Shown here piece by piece: positions 26,513 to 39,106 of a stretch of DNA of 64,000 bases; positions within the stretch are counted from its first letter, which is position 1; each line of letters starts with the position of its first letter. The translations under genes and the position numbers were made by a program. Origin of the DNA: Donghicola eburneus (GTDB lineage: Bacteria; Pseudomonadota; Alphaproteobacteria; Rhodobacterales; Rhodobacteraceae). Where the stretch lies: positions 124,001-188,000 of the forward strand of contig NZ_FOXY01000008.1 in assembly GCF_900115865.1 (NCBI RefSeq). Direction: 5' to 3'. The notes under the pieces are model-generated. The model was not told where the DNA came from, ran no database searches, and was given only the letters and a program-made list of their open reading frames with translations.

Positions 26513-27454
26513 TTAACCAGAATGGTCGTTACGGTACATCCGCGTAGGGTGCGCCTTGGTGGTTTCGAGCAAAACTGACACGAAATCCCGTTGCTCTGCG
26601 CTGGACAGAGTTTGATCGCGCATTGACACGCCCACAGGCCCGCCAAGCAGATCGCCTTCGAGTTCAAGCACCGCAAGGGTGCCATTCTCAAGTTCCGCAC
26701 CGACGACCCCGTGCGAGATGAACCAAATCACGTCAGAGCGCTGTACCACCCTCCGGCCAAAGGCGAGCGACACGTTTTCGAACGCGGGGCTGACATTATT
26801 CAGGCCAATGGAGTGTAGATAGGAGCGTACCGAGGATGCGATAACCGCCCCGGATGGTGGAAGCATCAGCGGATAGTTCCCGATCTCCTCCAATTGCCAA
26901 GAGCGCGACAAGAGAGGGTGATTTGGCCTGACCACGGGCACGACCTTTTCCGAATAGAGTTGTCGGAAGCTCAGACCTTCGACTGCACCGGCAGGGGGCA
27001 TGCGCCCGACGACCATATCCAACGCCCCCTCGCGCAGCTGCGACAACAGCATCCAGTTCGGTCCGGTCGTCACGCGCAGCAGGCAATCGGGGTGCATATC
27101 GCGGAATTTGAGTGCCGCCTCGGGCAGCAGGAACGTGGCCGCAGTGGGCAAAGCGCCGACAGAGAGTCGGGAAGGGGCACGTGGGGCCTCGCGCACCAAA
27201 TCTTGCGCGCGCTGAAGGTCGATCATCGCAGATCCGGCGTGCTGCTGGAACAGTTTGCCTGCCATGGTCAGCGCAAGTCGCCTGCCAGAGCGGTCGAACA
27301 GTGGCACGCCAAGGATATCCTCAAGCTCTTTGATGGTTTTGGATGCGGCGGGTTGGCTGACGTTTAGGGCGTTCGCGGCCGCGCTCAGACTGCCAAGGCG
27401 GGCTGTTTCCAGAAAGCACCGGATGTGTCGCATGCGAATGTGGGGGTCGATCAT
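26513..27454 (-). CDS. pcaQ: LysR-type activator of the protocatechuate operon
   Basis: A LysR regulator of 313 residues beginning MIDPHIRMRHIRCFLETARL, which aligns with the N-terminus of rhizobial PcaQ. The HTH is at about residues 20-45 (LSAAANALNVSQPAASKTIK). In rhizobia, PcaQ activates pcaDCHGB in response to beta-carboxymuconate-type intermediates. I choose the ATG at 27454 over one at 27466 because the latter lies inside the PcaQ-like operator (27458-27473) and adds residues absent from homologues. It is divergent from pcaD, with 88 bases between start codons. Confidence 0.9.
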   Translation of the reverse strand: MIDPHIRMRHIRCFLETARLGSLSAAANALNVSQPAASKTIKELEDILGVPLFDRSGRRLALTMAGKLFQQHAGSAMIDLQRAQDLVREAPRAPSRLSVGALPTAATFLLPEAALKFRDMHPDCLLRVTTGPNWMLLSQLREGALDMVVGRMPPAGAVEGLSFRQLYSEKVVPVVRPNHPLLSRSWQLEEIGNYPLMLPPSGAVIASSVRSYLHSIGLNNVSPAFENVSLAFGRRVVQRSDVIWFISHGVVGAELENGTLAVLELEGDLLGGPVGVSMRDQTLSSAEQRDFVSVLLETTKAHPTRMYRNDHSG

Positions 27455-27457
27455 GTC

Positions 27458-27473
27458 ATAACTCATGGGTTAT
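27458..27473. promoter_or_regulatory. PcaQ operator
   Basis: ATAACT-CATG-GGTTAT spans 27458-27473. It matches the rhizobial PcaQ consensus ATAACC-N4-GGTTAA at 10 of 12 fixed positions and is itself an inverted repeat with one mismatch. It lies directly between pcaQ and pcaD, where the regulator is expected to bind. Confidence 0.8.
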
Positions 27474-27542: not shown

Positions 27543-28328
27543 ATGCAGACTGTTTTGTTCGATCAGATGATGGTTCATTTCCGTGACGAAGGTCCTCGGG
27601 ATGGCCGCGTGGTGATGTTTGGCAACTCGCTCGGGACCGATCTGCGGGTCTGGGACGTCTTGCTGCCTTTGCTGCCCGAAGGTCTGCGCATCGTTCGGTT
27701 CGACAAGCCCGGTCACGGGCTGAGTGATTGCCCCGAGGCGCCTTATGCGATGGACGAATTGGTCCGTGATGCAGAGAACCTTGCCGAGCATCTGGGTTTG
27801 AAAGACATCACTTTTGTCGGGCTGTCGATTGGCGGTCTGATCGGACAGGGCTTTGCGGCCAAGCGTCCCGATCTGGTCAAAGCCTTGGTCCTGATGGACA
27901 CCGCAGCCCAGATCGGCACCGACGAGATGTGGAACACCCGCGTAAACGCAGTCCGCAAGGGCGGCATTGAGTCGCTGGCCGACCCCATTTTGGAACGCTG
28001 GTTTGCGCCGACCTATCGAAACGGTCAGTCGTCTCAGATGGCCGCATGGCGCAACATGCTGTGCCGCACCCCCGCCGAGGGCTACATCGGTTGTTGTCAG
28101 GCCATCGCTGCGGCGGACCTGACCGAAAGCACCCGCGCGCTGACTCTGCCTGTGATGGCGATGGCGGGCGATCAGGACGGTAGCACACCCCCCGCGCTGG
28201 TTCAGGCTACGGCGGAACTCTGCAACGCTCCGTTCCACATCATCGAAGACGCGGGCCACTTGCCCTGCGTCGAGCAGCCCGAAGTGGTTGCGAAACTTAT
28301 CAACGAATTCCTGGAGGCCACAGCCTGA
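27543..28328 (+). CDS. pcaD: 3-oxoadipate enol-lactonase
   Basis: A 261-residue alpha/beta hydrolase with the nucleophile S95 in GLSIGG, an acid in AGDQDG and a histidine in DAGHLPC, the usual triad. It hydrolyses beta-ketoadipate enol-lactone to beta-ketoadipate. It is the first gene of the operon, after GGGAG (27532-27536), and its stop shares a base with the pcaC start. Confidence 0.93.
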   Translation: MQTVLFDQMMVHFRDEGPRDGRVVMFGNSLGTDLRVWDVLLPLLPEGLRIVRFDKPGHGLSDCPEAPYAMDELVRDAENLAEHLGLKDITFVGLSIGGLIGQGFAAKRPDLVKALVLMDTAAQIGTDEMWNTRVNAVRKGGIESLADPILERWFAPTYRNGQSSQMAAWRNMLCRTPAEGYIGCCQAIAAADLTESTRALTLPVMAMAGDQDGSTPPALVQATAELCNAPFHIIEDAGHLPCVEQPEVVAKLINEFLEATA

Positions 28329-28714
28329 TGTCCGACCGTTTTGACACCGGCATGAAAACCCGTCGCGAAGTTCTGGGCGATGCCCACGTAGACCGCGCCG
28401 AGGCCAACAAAACCGATTTTGATCTCGCCTTTCAAACCCTGATCACCGAGGGCGCTTGGGGGACTGTTTGGTCCTCTGATGGCATCAGCCGTCGCGAACG
28501 TTCGATGATCACGCTGGCGCTCTTGGCAGCCACCGGCAACTTTGACGAGATCCCCATGCATATCCGGGCCACTGCTCGTACCGGCGCAAGCAAGCGCGAC
28601 GTTCTGGAGGCTTTCCAGCATGTTGCCATCTACGCCGGGGTCCCACGCGCGAACCATGCCTTGAAATTGGCGAAAGCCACCTATGCCGAAATGGAGGCGG
28701 CATCTGATGACTGA
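28328..28714 (+). CDS. pcaC: 4-carboxymuconolactone decarboxylase
   Basis: A 128-residue protein of the AhpD/CMD fold. The central helix carries WSSDGISRRERSMITLALLA and the catalytic-region histidine in EIPMHIRATAR. It decarboxylates gamma-carboxymuconolactone to the enol-lactone used by PcaD. It overlaps the pcaH start by eight bases. The length is typical of stand-alone PcaC rather than fused PcaL. Confidence 0.92.
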   Translation: MSDRFDTGMKTRREVLGDAHVDRAEANKTDFDLAFQTLITEGAWGTVWSSDGISRRERSMITLALLAATGNFDEIPMHIRATARTGASKRDVLEAFQHVAIYAGVPRANHALKLAKATYAEMEAASDD

Positions 28715-29435
28715 TTTAGGCCCGCTTATTCCGCGGAATCGCGAAGCGCACCCAGACGCATACGATCCTGCATATAAAACTTCTGTTGCCCGTTCCCCTT
28801 ACCTGCCTTTGTTGTCGATGGAATCCGGCCTCTCCGAGGAAACCGGTCCCACCTTTGGCCACAGCAAGCTCGGGGTACTCGACAACAACCTGATCCTGAA
28901 CTGGACCAAGGGCGCGGCCCCCGCTGTGGGCGAACGCATCCTGATGCACGGCCGTGTGGTTGATGAAAACAACCGCGCTGTGCCGAACACGCTGGTAGAA
29001 ATCTGGCAGGCGAACGCCGGTGGTCGCTACCGCCACAAGAAAGACACCTACCTGGCGCCTCTGGACCCGAACTTTGGTGGCTGCGGTCGCACCCTGACCG
29101 ACGAAAACGGCTACTACCAGTTCCTGACCATTCGCCCCGGTGCCTATCCTTGGCCGAACCGCGGAAATGACTGGCGCCCGATGCACATCCACATCTCGGT
29201 CTACGGTCACAGCTTTGGCCAGCGCCTGATCACCCAGATGTATTTTGAGGGTGATCCGCTGATCAACCACTGCCCGATTGCTGCGACCATCAAGAACCGC
29301 AGCCAGCTGGACCGTCTGGTCGCTCCGTTGGATCTGGCAAGCTCGCGTCCGCTGGATTTCCTTGCGTACAAGTTTGACATCGTTCTGCGCGGCCGCCGCC
29401 AGACCATGTTCGAAAACAAGCTGGAGGGGATGTAA
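28707..29435 (+). CDS. pcaH: Protocatechuate 3,4-dioxygenase beta subunit
   Basis: Starting at the ATG 28707, inside the end of pcaC, the 242-residue product keeps all four ferric ligands known from Pseudomonas PcaH: Y108 (GGRYRH), Y147 (PGAYPW), H160 and H162 (RPMHIH). It opens the protocatechuate ring between the hydroxyls to give 3-carboxy-cis,cis-muconate. It works as a heterodimer with PcaG, whose gene begins one base after its stop. Confidence 0.95.
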   Translation: MTDLGPLIPRNREAHPDAYDPAYKTSVARSPYLPLLSMESGLSEETGPTFGHSKLGVLDNNLILNWTKGAAPAVGERILMHGRVVDENNRAVPNTLVEIWQANAGGRYRHKKDTYLAPLDPNFGGCGRTLTDENGYYQFLTIRPGAYPWPNRGNDWRPMHIHISVYGHSFGQRLITQMYFEGDPLINHCPIAATIKNRSQLDRLVAPLDLASSRPLDFLAYKFDIVLRGRRQTMFENKLEGM

Positions 29436-29436
29436 G

Positions 29437-30036
29437 ATGGTACAGAAACTGGACACTCTGGTAGAGACCCCGTCGCAGACCGCTGGACCCTACGTCCACA
29501 TCGGTTTGATGCCCACCTATGCGGGCAACGCGGGCTACTACGACGAAGAGATCGGCACCAGCCCCATCGCCGACGGCGCCAAGGGCGAAGTGATCGAGAT
29601 CGTGGGTTCTGTCTTTGACGGCACGGGTTGGGCGATGCGCGACGCGCTGCTGGAAAGCTGGCAGCCCGACGCGGCTGGCAAGTTCCCCGGCCAAGAGGGT
29701 GCAGACCCCGCCGTGACCGGCCTGTGCCGCTTTGCGGCTGATGCCGACACTGGCGAGTTCACCCTGCGCACCGTCAAGCCGGGCAAGGTTGCTCAGCGCG
29801 GGGGCGGCTTCGCGGCACCCCACATCTCGGTGTGGATTTGCGCACGCGGCATCAACATCGGCCTGCAAACCCGCATCTACTTCGAGGATGAGGACAACAG
29901 CACCGACCCGCTGCTGGCACGCATCGAGCAGCGTCCCCGTGTGGACACTCTGATCGCCAAGAAAATCGGCGAGGGCAAATACCGCTTCGACGTCCGCCTG
30001 CAAGGCGAAGGCGAGACGGTTTTCCTCGACATCTAA
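29437..30036 (+). CDS. pcaG: Protocatechuate 3,4-dioxygenase alpha subunit
   Basis: A 199-residue intradiol dioxygenase alpha chain, starting at 29437 with the family opening TPSQTAGPYVHIGLMP. It shares the beta-sandwich with PcaH but lacks the HxH metal pair, as alpha chains do. The ribosome site lies in the end of pcaH (GGAGGGGA). A hairpin follows the stop codon. Confidence 0.95.
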   Translation: MVQKLDTLVETPSQTAGPYVHIGLMPTYAGNAGYYDEEIGTSPIADGAKGEVIEIVGSVFDGTGWAMRDALLESWQPDAAGKFPGQEGADPAVTGLCRFAADADTGEFTLRTVKPGKVAQRGGGFAAPHISVWICARGINIGLQTRIYFEDEDNSTDPLLARIEQRPRVDTLIAKKIGEGKYRFDVRLQGEGETVFLDI

Positions 30037-30043
30037 GTCATTC

Positions 30044-30067
30044 GGGGCGTCCATTCGTGGGCGCCCC
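30044..30067 (+). other. Intercistronic hairpin after pcaG
   Basis: Arms GGGGCGTCC (30044-30052) and GGGCGCCCC (30059-30067) pair over 9 bp with one G-U around ATTCGT. No T-run follows. It separates the dioxygenase genes from the BKACE gene and probably shapes mRNA decay or partial termination. Confidence 0.5.
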
Positions 30068-30087
30068 TCTGCATGAAAGACGCGAAC

Positions 30088-30930
30088 ATGACCAAACCCT
30101 GCATCATCTGTGTGGCCATCACAGGCTCGCTGCCGACCAAAGAGAACAACCCCGCAGTGCCGATCACTGTGGCAGAGCAGATCGAAAGCACTCAGGAAGC
30201 TTTCGAGGCTGGCGCAACCATCGCCCACTGCCACGTGCGTGACGACGAAGGCAAACCGACCTCGGACCCCGAGCGTTTTGGCCGCCTGAAAGAGGGTCTG
30301 GAAAAGCATTGTCCCGGCATGATCGTGCAGCTGTCGACCGGTGGCCGTTCCGGCGCGGGCCAGACCCGTGGCGGTATGCTGCCCCTGTCGCCCGACATGG
30401 CGTCGCTGTCGGTTGGCTCGAACAACTTCCCCACCCGCGTCTACGAAAACCCGCCGGAACTGGTCGATTGGCTGGCCTCCGAGATGGTGAAATACGGCGT
30501 GAAGCCCGAGATCGAGGCGTTCGACCTGAGCCACATCCTCAAGGCCGCCGACATGTTCAAGAAGGGCCAGATTGCAGAAACCCCCTACGTTCAGTTCGTG
30601 ATGGGCGTGAAAAACGCGATGCCCGTGGACCGCGATGTCTTTGAATACTACATCAAAACGGTGCATCGCCTGTTTGGCGAAGACGCCAACTGGTGTGCCG
30701 CTGGGATCGGCGCCCATCAGATCACGCTGAACGACTGGGCCGTGTCGTCGGGTGGTCACGCCCGCACCGGTCTGGAAGACAACGTCCGCATCGACCGCGA
30801 CACACTGGCGCCCTCGAACGCGGCACTGGTGCAGCGCGTGGTAGATCTGTGCGACAAGTACGAGCGCCCCGTTGCCACCTGGCAGCAGGCTCGTGAAATG
30901 CTGAACCTGAAAGTACCCGCAGTCGCATGA
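30088..30930 (+). CDS. Beta-keto acid cleavage enzyme (BKACE / DUF849, Kce-like)
   Basis: About 280 residues of the BKACE family. The metal site is visible as H47 and H49 (AHCHVRD) and E230 (GLEDN), matching H46, H48 and E230 of Kce. BKACE enzymes react a beta-keto acid with acetyl-CoA to give acetoacetate and a new acyl-CoA. Placed between pcaG and pcaB, the likely substrate is beta-ketoadipate, giving succinyl-CoA and acetoacetate. The next enzymes, ScoAB, would use exactly these products. The substrate is inferred, not shown. The start at 30088 (MTKPCIICVAITG) fits homologues better than an ATG five codons earlier. The stop overlaps pcaB by four bases. Confidence 0.88.
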   Translation: MTKPCIICVAITGSLPTKENNPAVPITVAEQIESTQEAFEAGATIAHCHVRDDEGKPTSDPERFGRLKEGLEKHCPGMIVQLSTGGRSGAGQTRGGMLPLSPDMASLSVGSNNFPTRVYENPPELVDWLASEMVKYGVKPEIEAFDLSHILKAADMFKKGQIAETPYVQFVMGVKNAMPVDRDVFEYYIKTVHRLFGEDANWCAAGIGAHQITLNDWAVSSGGHARTGLEDNVRIDRDTLAPSNAALVQRVVDLCDKYERPVATWQQAREMLNLKVPAVA

Positions 30931-32264
30931 CCCCGACCCCTTTGACTGGCGCCGTGATGGCGCCGCTCTATGGCGATATGCAGGCCACCGCCCTTCTGTC
31001 AGAAGAGGCGGTCGCCGCGCATATGGTCGCCTTTGAGATCGCCTTGGCCCGCGCGACCGAGGCGGCTGGCCTGACCGAAACCGGCAGTGCTGACGCGATC
31101 GCTGCTGCGCTGGACGGGTTCGACGCAGACTTGGCTGTACTGGGGCAGGGGACCGCTTCGGCGGGTGTTCCCGTGCCAGCTCTGGTTGCCCAACTGCGCG
31201 CGGCGTGCGGCGAGGCAGGGCAGGCATTGCACTGGGGCGCGACCTCGCAAGACGTGGTGGACACCTCGACCGTGATGGCCGTGCGTGATGTGCTGGAGCT
31301 GTACGCGGATCGCGTGTCTGCGCTGATTGGCGCCTTGGAACAGCAGTCCGAGGCATTCGGGGACGTGGTAATGGGCGGGCGCACGCGTTCGCAAGTGGCC
31401 ACTCCAATCACCTTTGGCATGCGGATCGCCACTTGGGCGGCACCGCTGATCGCATTGGAAGCAGAATTGCCCGCGCTGAAGGACCGGATCGCTCGGGTCC
31501 AGTTCGGCGGAGCGGCAGGCAACAATCTGGCGGTGGCGCCCCATGGTGCAGACATCGCAGAGACGTTGGCGTCTGAATTGGGCCTAGGCGCGACAGTCCA
31601 ATGGCACGGCGACCGAAGCGCGGTCATGGCAGTGGGTGCTTGGGTGGGCCGCGTGACCGCAGCCTTGGCCAAGATGGCAGGCGACCTGATCCTGATGGGC
31701 CGGTCCGAAGCTGCCGAGGGCAAGGCAGGCAAGGGCGGCGGATCGTCGACCATGCCCCAGAAGTCCAACCCGGTAGCGTCCGAGGCGATCGTCACGCTGA
31801 ATGCCTATGTCACCGCGCTGACCCCCATGCTCGCCATAGCGGCCAGCCCCGCAGAAGAGCGGGACGGGGGCCGTTGGGCGATGGAATGGTTCGCCCTGCC
31901 GCAAATCCTGATCGCAGGCGCAGCTGCCTTGCGTCACGGGGCGGATCTGGCCGCGACCCTTCAAGCCTTCCCCGAGAATATGGCACGGATGCTGGACGCA
32001 AACGGAGGCGCGATCATGTCCGAGGCTGCCAGCTTTGCACTTGCCGCGCATATGCCGCGAGCAGAAGCGCAGACGCTGGTGAAGGATGCTCTGAAACTGG
32101 TGAATGGGCAGGGCAAAACCCTGACTGAAGCCTTGTCCGAAATCGGGCCCGACGGGATCGACTGGATGCAAATCCTTGATCCACGTCAGGCCATCGCGCC
32201 GTCGCAGGCGCAGGCAAAGGCGATCTTTGCCAATCGAACCAACTCTTTGGAGGAGACAAAATGA
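30927..32264 (+). CDS. pcaB: 3-carboxy-cis,cis-muconate cycloisomerase
   Basis: A 445-residue member of the fumarase/aspartase superfamily. The signature [12 protein letters not shown] lies near residue 272, in the mobile active-site loop. It converts 3-carboxymuconate, the PcaGH product, to gamma-carboxymuconolactone for PcaC. It begins within the BKACE stop (ATGA) and is followed after 7 bases by ScoA, with GGAGG between. Confidence 0.93.
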
Positions 32265-32962
32265 ACAAAGTGTATGGCAGCGCGTCGGAGGCCTTGGATG
32301 GCCTGCTGCGCGACGACATGCTGATCGCGGCAGGGGGCTTTGGCCTGTGCGGGATTCCCGAACTCTTGATCGATGCGATTGTGGAAAACGGCGTCAAGAA
32401 CCTGACCGTGGCCTCGAACAACGCAGGCGTTGACGGGTTCGGTTTGGGCAAACTGCTGGATACCCGCCAGATCAAGAAGATGATGAGCTCTTACGTGGGC
32501 GAAAACGCGGAATTCATGCGCCAGTACCTGTCCGGTGAGCTGGAGCTGGAATTCAACCCGCAGGGCACCTTGGCCGAGCGGATGCGCGCTGGTGGCTGCG
32601 GCATTCCCGGTTTCTACACCAAAACTGGCGTGGGTACCGTGATCGCCGAAGGCAAAGACGTGAAGATCTTCAATGGTGAAGAATACATCATGGAAGAAGG
32701 CATTTTCGCCGACATTTCCATCGTCAAAGCGTGGAAAGCGGACGAAACCGGCAACGCGATTTTCCGCAAGACCGCCCGTAACTTCAATCCGCCCGCCGCG
32801 ATGTGCGGCAAGATTTGCGTGATGGAGGTCGAGGAAATCGTCCCCGCAGGCAGCCTTGACCCCGATCACATCCACCTGCCCGGCATCTACGTACACCGCC
32901 TGATTCAAGGTGAACACGAGAAGCGGATCGAACAGCGCACCGTGCGCAAGAAGGAGGCCTGA
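32261..32962 (+). CDS. scoA: Succinyl-CoA:3-ketoacid CoA-transferase, alpha subunit
   Basis: A 233-residue CoA-transferase subunit that resembles Bacillus ScoA far more than PcaI. It shares [49 protein letters not shown] and [12 protein letters not shown] with SCOT-type enzymes. The expected reaction is succinyl-CoA plus acetoacetate to succinate plus acetoacetyl-CoA. Automatic annotation in a pca operon might call it PcaI; the motifs argue otherwise, though overlap in substrate range is possible. Its start lies within the last bases of pcaB. Confidence 0.87.
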
Positions 32963-32963
32963 T

Positions 32964-33593
32964 ATGCCCTGGGATCGCAATCAAATGGCCGCCCGCGCGG
33001 CGCTGGAACTGGAAAACGGCACCTATGTGAACCTTGGTATCGGGATTCCGACGCTGGTTCCGAACTTCATCCCCGAAGGCGTGCAGGTCGTGCTGCAGTC
33101 CGAAAACGGGATGCTCGGCATGGGCCCGTTCCCGTATGAGGGGGACGAAGACCCCGATCTGATCAACGCAGGCAAGCAGACCATCACCGAACTGCCCGAG
33201 ACCAGCTACTTCGATTCGGCCACCAGCTTTGGCATGATCCGCGGCGGCAAGATCGCAGCGGCGATCCTTGGCGCGATGGAAGTGGCTGAAAACGGCGATC
33301 TGGCGAACTGGATGATCCCCGGCAAGCTAGTCAAAGGCATGGGCGGCGCGATGGATTTGGTGGCCGGCGTGGGCCGCGTGGTCGTGGTCATGGACCACAC
33401 CAACAAGCATGGCGAGTCGAAGCTGCTGAAATCCTGCACCCTGCCCCTAACCGGAAAGGGCGTGGTGGACCGCGTGATCACCAACCTAGGTGTTCTGGAC
33501 GTGGTTGAAGGTGGCCTGAAGATCGTGGAATGCGCAGACGGCGTCACCGAGGACGAACTGCGTGCTGCCACCGAAGCGACGATTGTGGATTAA
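32964..33593 (+). CDS. scoB: Succinyl-CoA:3-ketoacid CoA-transferase, beta subunit
   Basis: The ATG at 32964 follows AAGGAGG and gives 209 residues. The catalytic glutamate is E47 in SENGMLG, which forms the enzyme-CoA thioester. It pairs with ScoA one base upstream. It is the last gene of the pca operon, followed 29 bases later by a strong terminator. Confidence 0.89.
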
Positions 33594-34817: not shown

Positions 34818-36002
34818 ATGACCACACTCCCCTCCTGTTTTCGAGCTCGTAAGCTGGCCTTTGGCGCTGCAGCGCTGTTGACCTGTGCGACGCCTATGTT
34901 TGCCCAACAGGGTCCGGGCGGCGCGCCGTCCGCCACCCAAGTGGGCGTGATCGAAATGTCGCTGGAAAAGGTGCCCTATCAGGTCACTTTGCCCGGCCGC
35001 GCCGTTGCTTATGAACAAACCGATATCCGGCCTCGCGTCGAAGGCGTGATCGAAGAGATCGTCTATGCCCCCGGCCAGCAACTGGAGGTCGGTGATCTGA
35101 TGTACCGGATCGAGGCTGCATCCTACGACGCTGAACTGGCTGCCGCCGAAGCTGCGCTCGCGGGTGCCAAGGCGAGCGTGCAGTCTGCCCAAGCGACCGT
35201 GGACCGCTATCGGCAACTCGACGGGGTGGGAGTGACCCGCGAGAGTGTCGAGACTGCGGAAGTGGCCTTGATGCAGGCAGAGGCGGACGAGCGCGCCGCA
35301 GAGGCATCGCTGCAAACTGCGCAATTGAACAAGGACCGTACAGAAATCCGTGCCCCCATTCAGGGCGTGCCAGAGGTGTCCGAATTCTCGGTCGGAGCGT
35401 TGGTGACGGCAAATCAGGCTGACGCGCTAACGACCCTGACACGCTTGGACCCAATCTACGTGGACCTGACCGAATCCAGCGCGCGTCTGCTACGCACGCG
35501 CGAACGGATCGCAGACGGGCAGTTGACCATGGGCGACGAATTGGATGTGTCCCTGACATTGGAAAACGGCCAGTCCTATGACAGCAAAGGGTCTCTGGTC
35601 AGCCCCGGCACACTAGTGTCGTCGACCACCGGTGGCGTGGAATTTCGCATCCAATTTGATAACCCTGATCGCTTGATCATGCCTGGCATGTTCCTGCGGG
35701 CTCATGTGACCGTCGGCGAAACCGAGGCTGTTTTGGTACCCCAAGGCGCCACCGATCGCGCGGCCACCGGCGAGCTGACAGCCTTTGTCGCGGTGGATGG
35801 CAAGGCCGAGCAGGTCACACTAACATCCCAAGGCACCTATCAGAACGCGTGGGTCGTCACCGATGGGATCGAAGACGGTGATATGCTGATCGTGGACGGT
35901 CTGCGGAACCTGCGGAACGGTGCCGACGTCGAGACTGTAGCTGTGACCATCGACGAAAACGGTGTGGTCTCTGACGCGGTTGAAACCGCCGACGCGGAGT
36001 AA
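34818..36002 (+). CDS. RND efflux periplasmic adaptor subunit (AcrA/MexA type)
   Basis: A 394-residue membrane fusion protein. The signal peptide covers about residues 1-32 (MFAQQ). A split lipoyl domain flanks a helical hairpin rich in Ala and Glu (about 95-165), followed by the beta-barrel and membrane-proximal domains. The signal region contains a cysteine but no good lipobox, so it is probably a soluble periplasmic protein. It links the RND pump to an outer-membrane channel. No TolC-type gene is present in the window. Confidence 0.9.
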   Translation: MTTLPSCFRARKLAFGAAALLTCATPMFAQQGPGGAPSATQVGVIEMSLEKVPYQVTLPGRAVAYEQTDIRPRVEGVIEEIVYAPGQQLEVGDLMYRIEAASYDAELAAAEAALAGAKASVQSAQATVDRYRQLDGVGVTRESVETAEVALMQAEADERAAEASLQTAQLNKDRTEIRAPIQGVPEVSEFSVGALVTANQADALTTLTRLDPIYVDLTESSARLLRTRERIADGQLTMGDELDVSLTLENGQSYDSKGSLVSPGTLVSSTTGGVEFRIQFDNPDRLIMPGMFLRAHVTVGETEAVLVPQGATDRAATGELTAFVAVDGKAEQVTLTSQGTYQNAWVVTDGIEDGDMLIVDGLRNLRNGADVETVAVTIDENGVVSDAVETADAE

Positions 36003-36007
36003 GCGCC

Positions 36008-39000
36008 TTGGTCGATTTCTTTATACACCGCCCTGTTTTTGCGTGGGTTCTGGCGATTGTAACAATGCTCGCTGGGGCGTTCTCGCTGACCCAGCTGCCT
36101 GTTTCCCAGTATCCTGACATTGCCCCGACCACCGTCCGCGTTTCTGCCAACTACACCGGTGCAACCGCAGAGGCTGTGCAGAACTCTGTAACCTCGACCA
36201 TCGAGGATGCCATGACTGGTCTGGACGGCCTGCTCTACATGGTCTCGGATTCGAGCGAAGGCTCCAGTAGGATCACTCTGACCTTTGACGAAAGTGTCGA
36301 AGGGATTGATGCTCAGAACGAAGTGCAAACCAAGGTCCGGCAAGTAGAGACGCAACTGCCGGAGCGGGTGCAGCAAGCTGGCGTGAGTGTACAACGCTCC
36401 ACCAGCTCTATCCTGATGGTGGGGGCGCTCGTCTCGACTGATGGGTCCTACAATCAGGTGCAGCTTGGCGACATGTTGGACCAAACCATCGAAGGACCTG
36501 TTCAGCGAACCGAGGGCGTTGGCGGCATCAATACCTTTGGCTCTGGCTATGCGATGCGCATCTGGCTTGATCCTCTGAAACTGGCGCAGTTCCAATTGAC
36601 CCCCGCCGATATCACCAGCGCGGTTCAGGCGCAGAACACCACGGTATCTGTCGGCAGTCTGGGCAACCAGCCTACGGTTCAGGGCCAGCAGTTTACAGCG
36701 ACCATCACCGCCCAAAGCCAGCTGACCAGTGTAGAAGAGTTCGAGAGCATCCTGCTCAAGAGTGAACTGGACGGCAGTGCTGTATATTTGGGTGACGTGG
36801 CCGAGGTTGAAGTAGGGCAGGAAAGCTATGGCGGGGACAGCCGCTTTAGCGGTCTGAACGCTGCAGGTTTCGGTGTGAACCTCGCCACTGGTGCGAATGC
36901 GGTCGATACCGCCGAAGCTGTGCGCGAAGTGCTAGAGGGTCTGGAGCCCGCGCTGCCCGAGGGCGTAGAAATCCGCTATGCCTACGACACATCACCCTTT
37001 GTCGAGCTGTCGATCGAAAAGGTTTACCACACCCTGATCGAAGCCGTTGTGCTCGTATTCCTCGTGATTTTGATCTTCCTGCAGAACTGGCGCGCCACCA
37101 TCATTCCGATCATTGCCGTCCCTGTGGTTTTGCTTGGGACCTTCGCAATGCTCGCGGCGCTGGGGTATTCGATCAATACTCTGACCATGTTCGCAATGGT
37201 GCTGGCGATTGGCCTTCTGGTGGATGATGCCATCGTGGTCGTGGAGAACGTCGAACGCGTGATGGACGAAGACAATCTCGAACCGATGCCGGCAACCGAA
37301 CGTAGCATGGGCCAGATCACGGGCGCTCTGATCGGTATTGCCTTGGTCCTGTCGGCCGTGTTCCTGCCGATGGCGTTCTTTGGCGGCTCGACAGGCGTGA
37401 TCTACCGACAGTTCTCGGTCACGATTATCACCGCGATGGTACTGTCCGCGATCGTGGCGCTGGTTCTGACACCTGCTCTGTGTGCCAGCATCCTGAAGCG
37501 CAGCCATGGGACAGGCATTGCGCCCGCCCGTTGGTTCAACCGGAACTTCGACCGCGTGAACCGTGGATATGAACGCACGGTGGGCCGCATCCTGCGCAAG
37601 CCGATCATCATGTTGCTCGTGCTCGCAGGCGTTGGCGTTGGTGCGTGGCAAATCTACGAGCGTCTGTCTTCGTCGTTCCTGCCGACCGAAGACCAAGGCA
37701 TGTTGATGACCATGGTGCAGTTGACCGAAGGCTCGACCTCGCAGCAGACTTTGGCCGTCGTTGAGGAGATCGAGGATTATCTGCTGAACGAAGAGTCCGA
37801 GACTGTGGACAGTGTCTTTGCGGCGCTGGGCTTTAGCTTCTCGGGAACTGGCCAGAACAACGCGATGCTGTTCATCAAACTGCATGATTTCGATGATCGC
37901 GAGGCCGCAGATCGGGCAGCAAGCGCCTTGTCCGGCCGTGCGAACATGCGGTTCATGAGCCACCGCGCGGGGCAGATATTCTTTATGCAGCCGCCGGCCA
38001 TCCCCGGGATGGGCAACACCAACGGCTTCTCCATGTACCTCGTGGATAATGGCAGCAATGGTTATGAAAGCCTGATCGAAGCGGCCAATGAATTGGTGCA
38101 GAAGGCAAACGAGGACCCCAACCTGACCAACGTGCGCGTGTCTGGAATCGACGCCGAAAGCGCCCTGCGGGTCAATATCGACCAGCAGAAAATCGATGCC
38201 TTTGGGGTGTCGTTGTCTGACGTGAACTCGATGCTGTCTGTGGTCTTTAGCGGGTCCGAAGTGAATGACTTCGTTCTCGAAGGGAACTTGCGCCCTGTGA
38301 TCGTGCAAGCGGCGCCGGAACACCGGATGCAGCCCGAAGACATCGAAAGCTGGTACGTTCGTAACGACTCTGGCGAAATGGTGCCTTTCTCCAGCTTTGT
38401 CACGACTGAGTGGGTGTCCGTGCAGCCAAAGCTATCTCGCCACTCGGGCGCAGATGCGATCGAGATTTCGGGTAGCAACAGCGACACCGCGTCATCGGGT
38501 GCGGCCATGGACGCGATTGAGGCGTTGGCGACCTCGATTGACGGCGGTTACGGCGTCGAGTGGACCGGCATCAGCTATCAGGAGCGTCAGTCCGGCGATC
38601 AAGCACCCTACCTCTATGCGCTTGCCATTCTGGTGGTCTTCCTGTGTCTCGCCGCACTGTACGAAAGCTGGACTGTGCCGTTCTCGGTGATGCTCGCGGT
38701 GCCGGTAGGTGTCCTTGGCGCGCTGGCTGCGGCCTACCTGTTTGGCCAGTCGAACGATGTCTACTTTAAGGTGGGCATTCTGACGACCATCGGTCTGGCG
38801 GCCAAGAACGCCATTCTGATTGTCGAGTTTGCCAAAGATCTGGAAGAGCAGGGCAAAGAGTTGATCGAAGCCACGATGGAGGCCGCGCGCCTGCGCCTTC
38901 GTCCGATCTTGATGACCTCGCTCGCGTTCATGCTGGGGGTTGTGCCCCTTGCGACTGCGAGCGGTGCGGGCGCTGCGGCCCAGAACGCCATCGGCATCGG

Positions 39001-39106
39001 TGTGCTGGGGGGTATGGCCACGGCGACGTTTATCGGCGTGTTCATGGTGCCCGCGTTCTACGTGATCGTGCGCCAAGCAACGGATCGCAAGAAAAAGACT
39101 GCATGA
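36008..39106 (+). CDS. RND efflux transporter, HAE1 family (AcrB/MexB type)
   Basis: The start is a TTG at 36008, five bases after the adaptor stop, with GGAG eight bases upstream; the protein then reads VDFFIHRPVFAWVLAIV as AcrB-type pumps do. The length (1032 residues) is standard. Twelve membrane helices surround two large periplasmic loops. The proton-relay aspartates are in GLLVDDAIVVVENV near residue 405. It exports hydrophobic drugs or toxicants using the proton gradient. A strong terminator follows. The substrate cannot be predicted. Confidence 0.93.
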   Translation: MVDFFIHRPVFAWVLAIVTMLAGAFSLTQLPVSQYPDIAPTTVRVSANYTGATAEAVQNSVTSTIEDAMTGLDGLLYMVSDSSEGSSRITLTFDESVEGIDAQNEVQTKVRQVETQLPERVQQAGVSVQRSTSSILMVGALVSTDGSYNQVQLGDMLDQTIEGPVQRTEGVGGINTFGSGYAMRIWLDPLKLAQFQLTPADITSAVQAQNTTVSVGSLGNQPTVQGQQFTATITAQSQLTSVEEFESILLKSELDGSAVYLGDVAEVEVGQESYGGDSRFSGLNAAGFGVNLATGANAVDTAEAVREVLEGLEPALPEGVEIRYAYDTSPFVELSIEKVYHTLIEAVVLVFLVILIFLQNWRATIIPIIAVPVVLLGTFAMLAALGYSINTLTMFAMVLAIGLLVDDAIVVVENVERVMDEDNLEPMPATERSMGQITGALIGIALVLSAVFLPMAFFGGSTGVIYRQFSVTIITAMVLSAIVALVLTPALCASILKRSHGTGIAPARWFNRNFDRVNRGYERTVGRILRKPIIMLLVLAGVGVGAWQIYERLSSSFLPTEDQGMLMTMVQLTEGSTSQQTLAVVEEIEDYLLNEESETVDSVFAALGFSFSGTGQNNAMLFIKLHDFDDREAADRAASALSGRANMRFMSHRAGQIFFMQPPAIPGMGNTNGFSMYLVDNGSNGYESLIEAANELVQKANEDPNLTNVRVSGIDAESALRVNIDQQKIDAFGVSLSDVNSMLSVVFSGSEVNDFVLEGNLRPVIVQAAPEHRMQPEDIESWYVRNDSGEMVPFSSFVTTEWVSVQPKLSRHSGADAIEISGSNSDTASSGAAMDAIEALATSIDGGYGVEWTGISYQERQSGDQAPYLYALAILVVFLCLAALYESWTVPFSVMLAVPVGVLGALAAAYLFGQSNDVYFKVGILTTIGLAAKNAILIVEFAKDLEEQGKELIEATMEAARLRLRPILMTSLAFMLGVVPLATASGAGAAAQNAIGIGVLGGMATATFIGVFMVPAFYVIVRQATDRKKKTA

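What the first reader, a model, noticed from the sequence alone, without database searches (positions are those of the whole stretch)
30088..33593. Alternative lower beta-ketoadipate pathway: BKACE plus SCOT in place of PcaIJ/PcaF
Sequence: the pca operon holds every gene from protocatechuate to beta-ketoadipate (pcaGH, B, C, D), then a BKACE-family gene (H47, H49, E230) between pcaG and pcaB, and a CoA-transferase pair with ScoA/ScoB motifs, not PcaI/PcaJ motifs. There is no pcaF thiolase in the operon. Established: BKACE enzymes turn a beta-keto acid and acetyl-CoA into acetoacetate and an acyl-CoA; SCOT turns succinyl-CoA and acetoacetate into succinate and acetoacetyl-CoA. Inference: beta-ketoadipate plus acetyl-CoA gives succinyl-CoA plus acetoacetate, which ScoAB converts to succinate plus acetoacetyl-CoA, and a housekeeping thiolase gives two acetyl-CoA. 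The net yield (succinate plus acetyl-CoA) is the same as the classical route, by different chemistry.
Basis: partly seen in the sequence, partly recalled or inferred. Interest (0 to 1): 0.77.

Follow-up and report, generated by a model that had tools for sequence, protein, structure and literature searches.

The report
BKACE plus SCOT protocatechuate operon
A marine-type bacterium's operon for breaking down a lignin-type aromatic ends with a different pair of enzymes from the textbook ones, and related genomes suggest that this little-recognised ending is common in the family, although the chemistry itself was already known.

Summary
In detail: window 27543-33593 is one tight operon, pcaD-C-H-G-BKACE-pcaB-scoA-scoB, with pcaQ divergent. 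The BKACE passes NCBIfam's curated model '3-oxoadipate:acetyl-CoA acetyltransferase' (494 bits, cut-off 350). The genome has no pcaF over cut-off and only two PcaI/ScoA-family genes, both SCOT type; the operon's pair is a near-copy (224/233 and 203/209 residues) of one beside topA. It is not new chemistry: BKACE replacing PcaIJF in pca operons is already proposed in print (PMC8963497, PMC12379598). What my searches did not find in print: SCOT recruited beside BKACE, more than once; and, among 292 family genomes, 177 have pcaH, all 177 have BKACE or PcaI, and 140 have BKACE without PcaI, against 32 with both PcaI and PcaF. This offers another reading of Roseovarius genetics now explained as 'pathway crosstalk' (PMC12442348).

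The parts
26513..27466 (-). pcaQ, LysR-type regulator, divergent (the start may be the internal ATG at 27454)
   Evidence: TIGR02424 TF_pcaQ 304.1 bits, cut-off 303.8
27458..27473 (.). candidate PcaQ box ATAACTCATGGGTTAT between pcaQ and pcaD
   Evidence: sequence; the motif ATAAC-N6-GTTAT is recalled; an exact match occurs in 3 of 33 pcaQ-linked regions tested, this window included, so weak
27543..28328 (+). pcaD, 3-oxoadipate enol-lactonase
   Evidence: TIGR02427 303.3 bits, cut-off 255.85
28328..28714 (+). pcaC, 4-carboxymuconolactone decarboxylase
   Evidence: TIGR02425 190.5 bits, cut-off 155.7
28683..29435 (+). [quoted passage not shown]
   Evidence: TIGR02422 335.7 bits, cut-off 296.4
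29428..30036 (+). pcaG, protocatechuate 3,4-dioxygenase alpha
   Evidence: TIGR02423 210.4 bits, cut-off 126.25
30088..30930 (+). BKACE, 3-oxoadipate:acetyl-CoA acetyltransferase type; H47, H49, E230, also R226, D231 and R117
   Evidence: NF053568 494.2 bits, cut-off 350; PDB 3fa5 528 bits; residues invariant in 80 of 80 loci
30927..32264 (+). [quoted passage not shown] overlaps BKACE by 4 nt
   Evidence: best matches are PcaB models, both under their cut-offs (PRK05975 293.3 vs 371, TIGR02426 275.1 vs 355.75)
32261..32962 (+). scoA, SCOT-type CoA-transferase subunit A; overlaps pcaB by 4 nt
   Evidence: TIGR02429 230.4 bits; best solved-structure matches are SCOT 3cdk, 3rrl; tree
32964..33593 (+). 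scoB, SCOT-type CoA-transferase subunit B with SENG motif
   Evidence: TIGR02428 327.9 bits, cut-off 243.55; best solved-structure match 3cdk_B; tree

Best explanation
This is a complete protocatechuate operon whose lower half replaces PcaIJ/PcaF. Shown by sequence: the operon, the BKACE family, the SCOT type of the CoA-transferase, and that neither a PcaI-type gene nor a PcaF over cut-off was found in the genome. Inferred: (1) BKACE condenses acetyl-CoA with beta-ketoadipate and releases succinyl-CoA and acetoacetate; (2) ScoAB moves CoA from succinyl-CoA to acetoacetate, giving succinate and acetoacetyl-CoA; (3) a housekeeping thiolase splits this with CoA into two acetyl-CoA, or a PhaB-like reductase draws it towards polyhydroxybutyrate. 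Net products equal those of the classical route. The operon scoAB probably arose as a duplicate of the housekeeping scoAB next to topA, which places SCOT in the same operon as the enzyme that makes acetoacetate; copies in this genus appear to exchange sequence.
For: BKACE passes the curated 3-oxoadipate equivalog while the genome's other BKACE does not (165 bits). Own genome: best pcaF-model hit 412 bits vs cut-off 597; only two TIGR02429 genes, 230.7 and 230.5 bits, whereas PcaI-type genes of the family score 306.9 bits or more. scoAB copies; tree with 100/99 support for operon plus topA copies of the genus and a separate 100/100 clade of five PcaI-type pairs, one annotated beside pcaF and one with a thiolase downstream. 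PcaI-type genes lie within 2.5 kb of a pcaF in 17 of the 34 genomes where both were listed, ScoA-type genes in 0 of 25 checked. Same-strand packing with 4-nt overlaps. 177 of 177 genomes with pcaH have BKACE or PcaI; the 5 without BKACE all have PcaI (Fisher p 3e-4). scoAB follows BKACE also in a different aromatic cluster. Thiolases: one passes an acetyl-CoA C-acetyltransferase equivalog (670 vs 514), another passes the general TIGR01930 (465 vs 240.55) and has a phaB-like gene downstream by eye. Part of the Roseovarius nubinhibens genetics fits (PMC12442348).
Against: No enzyme assay or mutant of this organism. A BktB-type thiolase (L004, 655 vs 565 bits on PRK09051, but 589 vs 725 on the BktB equivalog) might act on 3-oxoadipyl-CoA. 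SCOT-type enzymes may also accept beta-ketoadipate (not testable here). 32 of 177 genomes with pcaH hold BKACE and PcaI together; 94 of the 140 with BKACE but no PcaI hold a pcaF-model thiolase; 3 of the 140 (G062, G235, G266) have no ScoA-type or other TIGR02429 gene, so acetoacetate must be activated otherwise there. The authors of PMC12442348 read their CoA-transferase gene as pcaI and their thiolases as acting on 3-oxoadipyl-CoA; loss of pcaF together with a second thiolase lowered the final density, and one acetyl-CoA acetyltransferase gene was down on 4-hydroxybenzoate in the wild type, neither of which my model predicts by itself. The genome is in 59 contigs.
Confidence: 0.82

Rival explanations
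1. Classical chemistry with stand-in enzymes: the operon CoA-transferase charges beta-ketoadipate as PcaIJ would, and a broad thiolase (the BktB-like gene or others) cleaves beta-ketoadipyl-CoA; BKACE is accessory.
For: SCOT and PcaIJ belong to the same NCBIfam families; a BktB-type thiolase is present; PMC12442348 concludes that acyl- and acetyltransferases can stand in for pcaF in Roseovarius, and its double mutant of pcaF and an acyltransferase reached a lower density.
Against: The operon pair is a near-copy of a topA-linked SCOT and outside the PcaIJ clade; it would leave the BKACE, present in 172 of 177 genomes with pcaH, without a role; disruption of pcaF alone gave no growth difference in Roseovarius.
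Confidence: 0.11
2. Two parallel routes: BKACE serves as overflow when succinyl-CoA or free CoA is short, and a CoA-transferase and thiolase carry the main flux.
For: 32 of 177 genomes with pcaH hold BKACE and PcaI together, for example Paracoccus siganidrum L028 with both in one cluster.
Against: In the window genome no PcaI-type gene and no pcaF over cut-off is found.
Confidence: 0.05
3. The BKACE acts on a different beta-keto acid from a neighbouring pathway and is in the operon by chance or history.
For: BKACE enzymes are promiscuous (PMC4922564, passages read).
Against: Curated 3-oxoadipate equivalog; BKACE directly after pcaG in 40 of 80 loci by the script's rule, among them loci titled Methylobacterium, Bosea and Methylobrevis; beta-ketoadipate is the end product of the other operon genes.
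Confidence: 0.02

Closest known systems
3-oxoadipate:acetyl-CoA acetyltransferase (NCBIfam NF053568), BKACE/DUF849 family (Bastard et al. 2014, not read; seen only through papers that cite it)
   Same: The BKACE is a member, far over the curated cut-off; conserved H47, H49, E230.
   Different: No difference found; its activity here is untested.
pca clusters of Methylobacterium with DUF849 (kce) between pcaG and pcaB and no pcaIJF (PMC8963497, PMC12379598; passages read)
   Same: Same position between pcaG and pcaB, same proposed bypass.
   Different: In the passages read no SCOT pair in the cluster is described; here scoAB closes the operon.
Classical beta-ketoadipate pathway with PcaIJ and PcaF
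   Same: Upper pathway genes and, by inference, net products.
   Different: No PcaI-type gene and no PcaF over cut-off found in the genome; different chemistry in the last steps.
Deoxyribonate catabolism with BKACE, then CoA-transferase and thiolase (PMC6365646, passages read)
   Same: BKACE gives acetoacetate that must be activated and thiolysed; in Paraburkholderia bryophila the genes for this were important.
   Different: Other beta-keto acid; in Pseudomonas simiae the authors propose that acetoacetate activation is genetically redundant, here a SCOT is in the operon.

Membership tests
3-oxoadipate:acetyl-CoA acetyltransferase (NF053568) | score over the curated cut-off of 350 bits | tested here: met
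   494.2 bits
3-oxoadipate:acetyl-CoA acetyltransferase (NF053568) | BKACE active-site residues (HxH, Arg, Glu, Asp) | tested here: met
   H47, H49, R226, E230, D231 invariant in 80 of 80 loci and aligned with Kce 2y7d; their roles are recalled
3-oxoadipate:acetyl-CoA acetyltransferase (NF053568) | enzymatic activity on beta-ketoadipate and acetyl-CoA | not testable with these tools
   needs an assay
[quoted passage not shown]
   252.4 bits; R117 here aligns with an Asp in Kce
SCOT (ScoAB) | phylogenetic place with ScoAB rather than PcaIJ | tested here: met
   tree; two-humped family scores; best solved-structure matches 3cdk, 3rrl; a PcaI-type query also hits 3cdk first, but far more weakly (199 against 317 bits)
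SCOT (ScoAB) | acetoacetate as CoA acceptor | not testable with these tools
   needs an assay
Classical beta-ketoadipate lower pathway (PcaIJ + PcaF) | PcaI/PcaJ-type CoA-transferase in the genome | tested here: not met
   only two TIGR02429 genes, both about 230 bits and SCOT type
Classical beta-ketoadipate lower pathway (PcaIJ + PcaF) | PcaF over cut-off in the genome | tested here: not met
   best 412 bits vs 597; that gene is BktB type

The most novel reading that the evidence does not exclude
In Rhodobacteraceae the BKACE-SCOT-acetoacetyl-CoA thiolase route, not PcaIJ/PcaF, is the default end of the beta-ketoadipate pathway, for protocatechuate and for at least one further intradiol ring-cleavage cluster. 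The 'missing pcaIJ' described for Roseovarius nubinhibens is then the housekeeping SCOT, and the 'crosstalk' thiolases there act mainly on acetoacetyl-CoA. SCOT has been captured next to BKACE several separate times by duplication from its own housekeeping locus.
Probability: 0.6. Interest if true: 0.65.

Novelty: new variant of a known kind. Interest (0 to 1): 0.52.

Why it matters
Protocatechuate is a hub for lignin- and algae-derived aromatics, and PMC12442348 says that the Roseobacter pathway remained incomplete for over 20 years. If this route is the default, genes named pcaIJ and pcaF in the family may often be misread, published knock-out data would need another reading, and aromatic carbon would reach acetoacetyl-CoA, one reductase step from the polyhydroxybutyrate precursor. 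It is directly testable in R. nubinhibens, for which gene inactivation exists (PMC12442348).

Tried and rejected
Tried and weak: the PcaQ box (recalled motif) matches exactly in only 3 of 33 regions. TIGR02430 (pcaF) does not separate pathways well: 58 of 115 genomes without pcaH also pass it, probably phenylacetate-type thiolases (recalled), so pcaF absence is argued only for the window genome. The NCBIfam CoA-transferase models lump PcaIJ and ScoAB, so their names were not used to tell them apart. A first PcaI count from one Paracoccus query (49 genomes) missed four more genomes that the TIGR02429 scores showed (G023, G165, G199, G219); one search is superseded. The count of BKACE within 2.6 kb of pcaH printed rests on genomes that I picked by hand from the listings, with the window's own pcaH position entered approximately, and is not used. 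I first took the Arg of TGGR for residue 86; residue 86 is Gly. One search gave partly spurious antisense ORFs; only the order of conserved genes was taken from it, with names from L098.

Considered and rejected: that G292, same genus, lacks scoAB (0 matches). Its contig ends about 94 nt inside scoA directly after pcaB, as expected if near-identical copies broke the assembly; its scoAB number is therefore unknown. The tree warns of long branches (AtoDA outgroup with the PcaIJ group), so no root between the two groups is argued. The AU tests used groups named after the tree was seen. The PcaIJ group rests on context for two of its five rows (L139, L028); L099 shows no thiolase in its 16.7 kb, and L140 and L141 carry no annotation.

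Limits: genomes of one family are related; one genome per genus still gives median p 2e-14 for pcaH with BKACE. Searches for prior reports; most subscription papers are not held; Buchan 2004 was not held, and Bastard 2014 was not asked for and is known only from papers that cite it.
Full report
What is there. The window is G000:C41:124001-188000 of a 4.43 Mb genome in 59 contigs, 99.99% complete. Its genus code is shared with G293, one of whose contigs (177,288 bases) has the length of the Donghicola mangrovi contig brought in as L018; the window is therefore most likely from a Donghicola species (inference). On the + strand lie pcaD, pcaC, pcaH, pcaG, BKACE, pcaB, scoA and scoB (27543-33593), with pcaQ divergent. 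pcaB overlaps BKACE by 4 nt, scoA overlaps pcaB by 4 nt, and one base separates scoA from scoB, so the last four genes look translationally coupled (inference).

BKACE. The protein scores 494 bits on NCBIfam NF053568, '3-oxoadipate:acetyl-CoA acetyltransferase', cut-off 350, and only 252 on the lysine-fermentation enzyme, cut-off 382. Its nearest solved structures are DUF849 or uncharacterised proteins (3fa5, 528 bits; 3chv; 3no5), then Kce 2y7d (170 bits). H47, H49, R226, E230 and D231 are invariant in 80 of 80 related loci. R117 is also invariant in the 80; it aligns with an Asp of Kce, whose substrate carries an amino group, and with Tyr in the genome's second BKACE, which lies beside a gene that by eye resembles carnitine dehydrogenase. 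I infer, from alignment only, that R117 meets the distal carboxylate of beta-ketoadipate.

No classical enzymes found in this genome. The pcaF model finds nothing over cut-off: best 412 bits against 597, and that gene is BktB type (655 bits, cut-off 565, on the BktB subfamily; 589 against 725 on the BktB equivalog). Of the other thiolases, one passes an acetyl-CoA C-acetyltransferase equivalog (670 against 514) and one passes the general TIGR01930 model (465 against 240.55) though not the acetyltransferase models, and is followed by an SDR gene that by eye looks like phaB. The PcaI/ScoA model finds two genes only, 230.7 and 230.5 bits.

The CoA-transferase is SCOT type. The second pair lies next to topA on C17. 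Operon and topA copies share 224 of 233 (ScoA) and 203 of 209 (ScoB) residues, 633 of 699 and 582 of 627 bases. In the 13 same-family genomes outside the genus that the relatives search gave with a match, each with one copy (L103-L114, L116), topA lies within the 1.5 kb flank in 7, which fits a housekeeping gene. In a tree of 39 ScoA+ScoB rows the three operon pairs of this genus fall with the three topA pairs of the same genomes (100/99). Five PcaI-type pairs form a separate group (100/100); one is annotated beside pcaF (L139) and another has a thiolase downstream (L028). In a further check PcaI-type genes lay within 2.5 kb of a pcaF in 17 of the 34 genomes where both were listed, ScoA-type genes in 0 of 25. 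Within the genus the copies pair by genome in G293 (100/100) and, less firmly, in G294 (97/76); in the window's genome they do not, its operon copy being nearer to G294's topA copy (scoA 95.0%) than to its own (90.6%). Holding the three operon copies as one clade is rejected. I read this as gene conversion between copies at different times. G292, the fourth member, shows the same scoA start after pcaB before its contig ends.

SCOT beside BKACE elsewhere. Among the 80 closest BKACE loci kept of 577 that encode a relative, 40 have BKACE directly after pcaG by the script's rule; one search shows a few more that the rule missed. 16 have a scoA over 70% identical in the locus; 1 has a PcaI-like gene (L028). 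Four of the 16 are pca clusters (L018, L050, L082, L089); L062 has pca genes further away in the locus. Of the 12 others, 11 share a LysR gene and most a transporter and hydrolase set. This second cluster is read best on a Marinibacterium plasmid: branched-chain-type ABC transporter, LysR regulator, intradiol dioxygenase, a 126-residue protein without Pfam or NCBIfam match, alpha/beta hydrolase, BKACE, scoA, scoB, BenE transporter. That the other loci carry the same dioxygenase is inferred from gene order. On the tree the BKACE-linked label needs 9 changes, and one clade of all 14 BKACE-linked pairs is rejected: several recruitments, or exchange with the housekeeping copy, or both.

The family as a whole. 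In 292 genomes of the order sample (all coded as one family; Rhodobacteraceae is my name for it, from the named relatives), 177 have pcaH at E 1e-60 or better (176 over cut-off), 208 a BKACE over the NF053568 cut-off, 184 a pcaF over cut-off and 278 a ScoA-type gene at E 1e-85 or better. TIGR02429 scores fall in two humps, 306.9 bits and above (PcaI type) and, apart from one gene at 267.5, at most 248.3 (ScoA type and others); 53 genomes have a PcaI-type gene. pcaH goes with BKACE: 172 of 177, against 36 of 115 without pcaH (p 2e-36). It does not clearly go with PcaI: 37 of 177 against 16 of 115 (p 0.16). All 177 have BKACE or PcaI: 140 BKACE only, 32 both, 5 PcaI only. The five without BKACE all have PcaI (p 3e-4); two of these five have no pcaF over cut-off. 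137 of the 140 BKACE-only genomes have a ScoA-type gene; the other three (G062, G235, G266) have no TIGR02429 gene at all and remain unexplained. 94 of the 140 also have a pcaF-model thiolase and 46 do not. Only 32 of 177 hold both PcaI and PcaF. With one genome per genus the pcaH-BKACE link keeps median p 2e-14 over 2000 draws.

What is in print. PMC8963497 (passages) reports DUF849 between pcaG and pcaB and no pcaIJF in Methylobacterium clusters and raises the bypass; it speaks of G4 BKACE, whereas PMC4922564 (passages) lists beta-ketoadipate under G3 and 'negatively charged' under G4. PMC12379598 (passages) describes the bypass, succinyl-CoA plus acetoacetate. PMC6449761 (passages) suggests a beta-ketoadipate cleavage enzyme with the catechol genes of R. 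eutropha H16 and notes homologues near protocatechuate dioxygenase genes. PMC6365646 (passages) shows the same downstream logic for deoxyribonate. PMC11961710 (passages) gives structures and mechanism of another BKACE. PMC12542667 (passages) lists PcaIJ and PcaF in the cluster of M. extorquens SLI 505. Bastard et al. 2014 was not read. In the searches named under Tried and rejected I found no report of SCOT in a pca operon or of the family-wide pattern.

A published case that the model partly fits. PMC12442348 (abstract, sections 5, 8, 9, 11 and passages) studied 4-hydroxybenzoate use in Roseovarius nubinhibens. A 3-oxoacid CoA-transferase gene away from the pca cluster was required and was called pcaI; pcaF was not induced and its loss alone had no effect; acetyl- and acyltransferases were proposed to replace it by crosstalk. 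BKACE, then SCOT, then acetoacetyl-CoA thiolase predicts that SCOT is essential and pcaF dispensable, and fits a role of these transferases. Not predicted as such: loss of pcaF together with the acyltransferase lowered the final density, and one acetyltransferase gene was down in the wild type on 4-hydroxybenzoate. The main text has no acetoacetate, aminohexanoate, BKACE or DUF849, but cites Bastard 2014 for other fates of beta-ketoadipate; figures and supplements were not seen. I could not fetch that genome by name, so its BKACE and the type of its CoA-transferase are untested; the authors' reading stands as a rival.

Verdict. Known in kind, new as a variant (SCOT built into the operon) and, as far as I could search, in its reach.

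Noticed in passing
L098:4541-11535, similar gene order in L062, L069, L071, L072, L081, L085, L088: A second BKACE-ScoAB cluster with an intradiol dioxygenase, alpha/beta hydrolase, BenE and LIV-type transporter, no muconate cycloisomerase annotated in the 18.7 kb of L098, and a 126-residue protein with no Pfam or NCBIfam match: possibly an undescribed ring-cleavage route to beta-ketoadipate or a relative.
   Followed up: partly
G000:C17:28966-30604 (L010) and window 32261-33593: The scoAB copies of this genus show patches of identity, and in two of three genomes cluster by genome, pointing to gene conversion; in two of the three topA copies (L102, L120) scoA and scoB stand about 300 nt apart, in the window's genome with a small ORF between them.
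   Followed up: partly
G000:C49:6396-7316 (L001): Second BKACE of the genome, over no NCBIfam cut-off among the families listed, between genes that by eye resemble enoyl-CoA hydratase and a fused carnitine dehydrogenase; perhaps for 3-dehydrocarnitine.
   Followed up: no
L028:4559-13800: Paracoccus siganidrum has BKACE in the pca operon and, downstream, PcaIJ-like genes with a thiolase: both routes in one cluster.
   Followed up: partly
G020 and G023 (genus code g18): pcaH present, no BKACE over cut-off, a PcaI-type gene but no pcaF over cut-off: the thiolase of these two genomes is unexplained.
   Followed up: no
G062, G235, G266: pcaH and BKACE present but no gene of the PcaI/ScoA family at all: how acetoacetate would be activated is open, perhaps by a ligase, not searched.
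   Followed up: no
window 34818-39106: By eye an RND-type efflux pair downstream of the operon; not searched.
   Followed up: no
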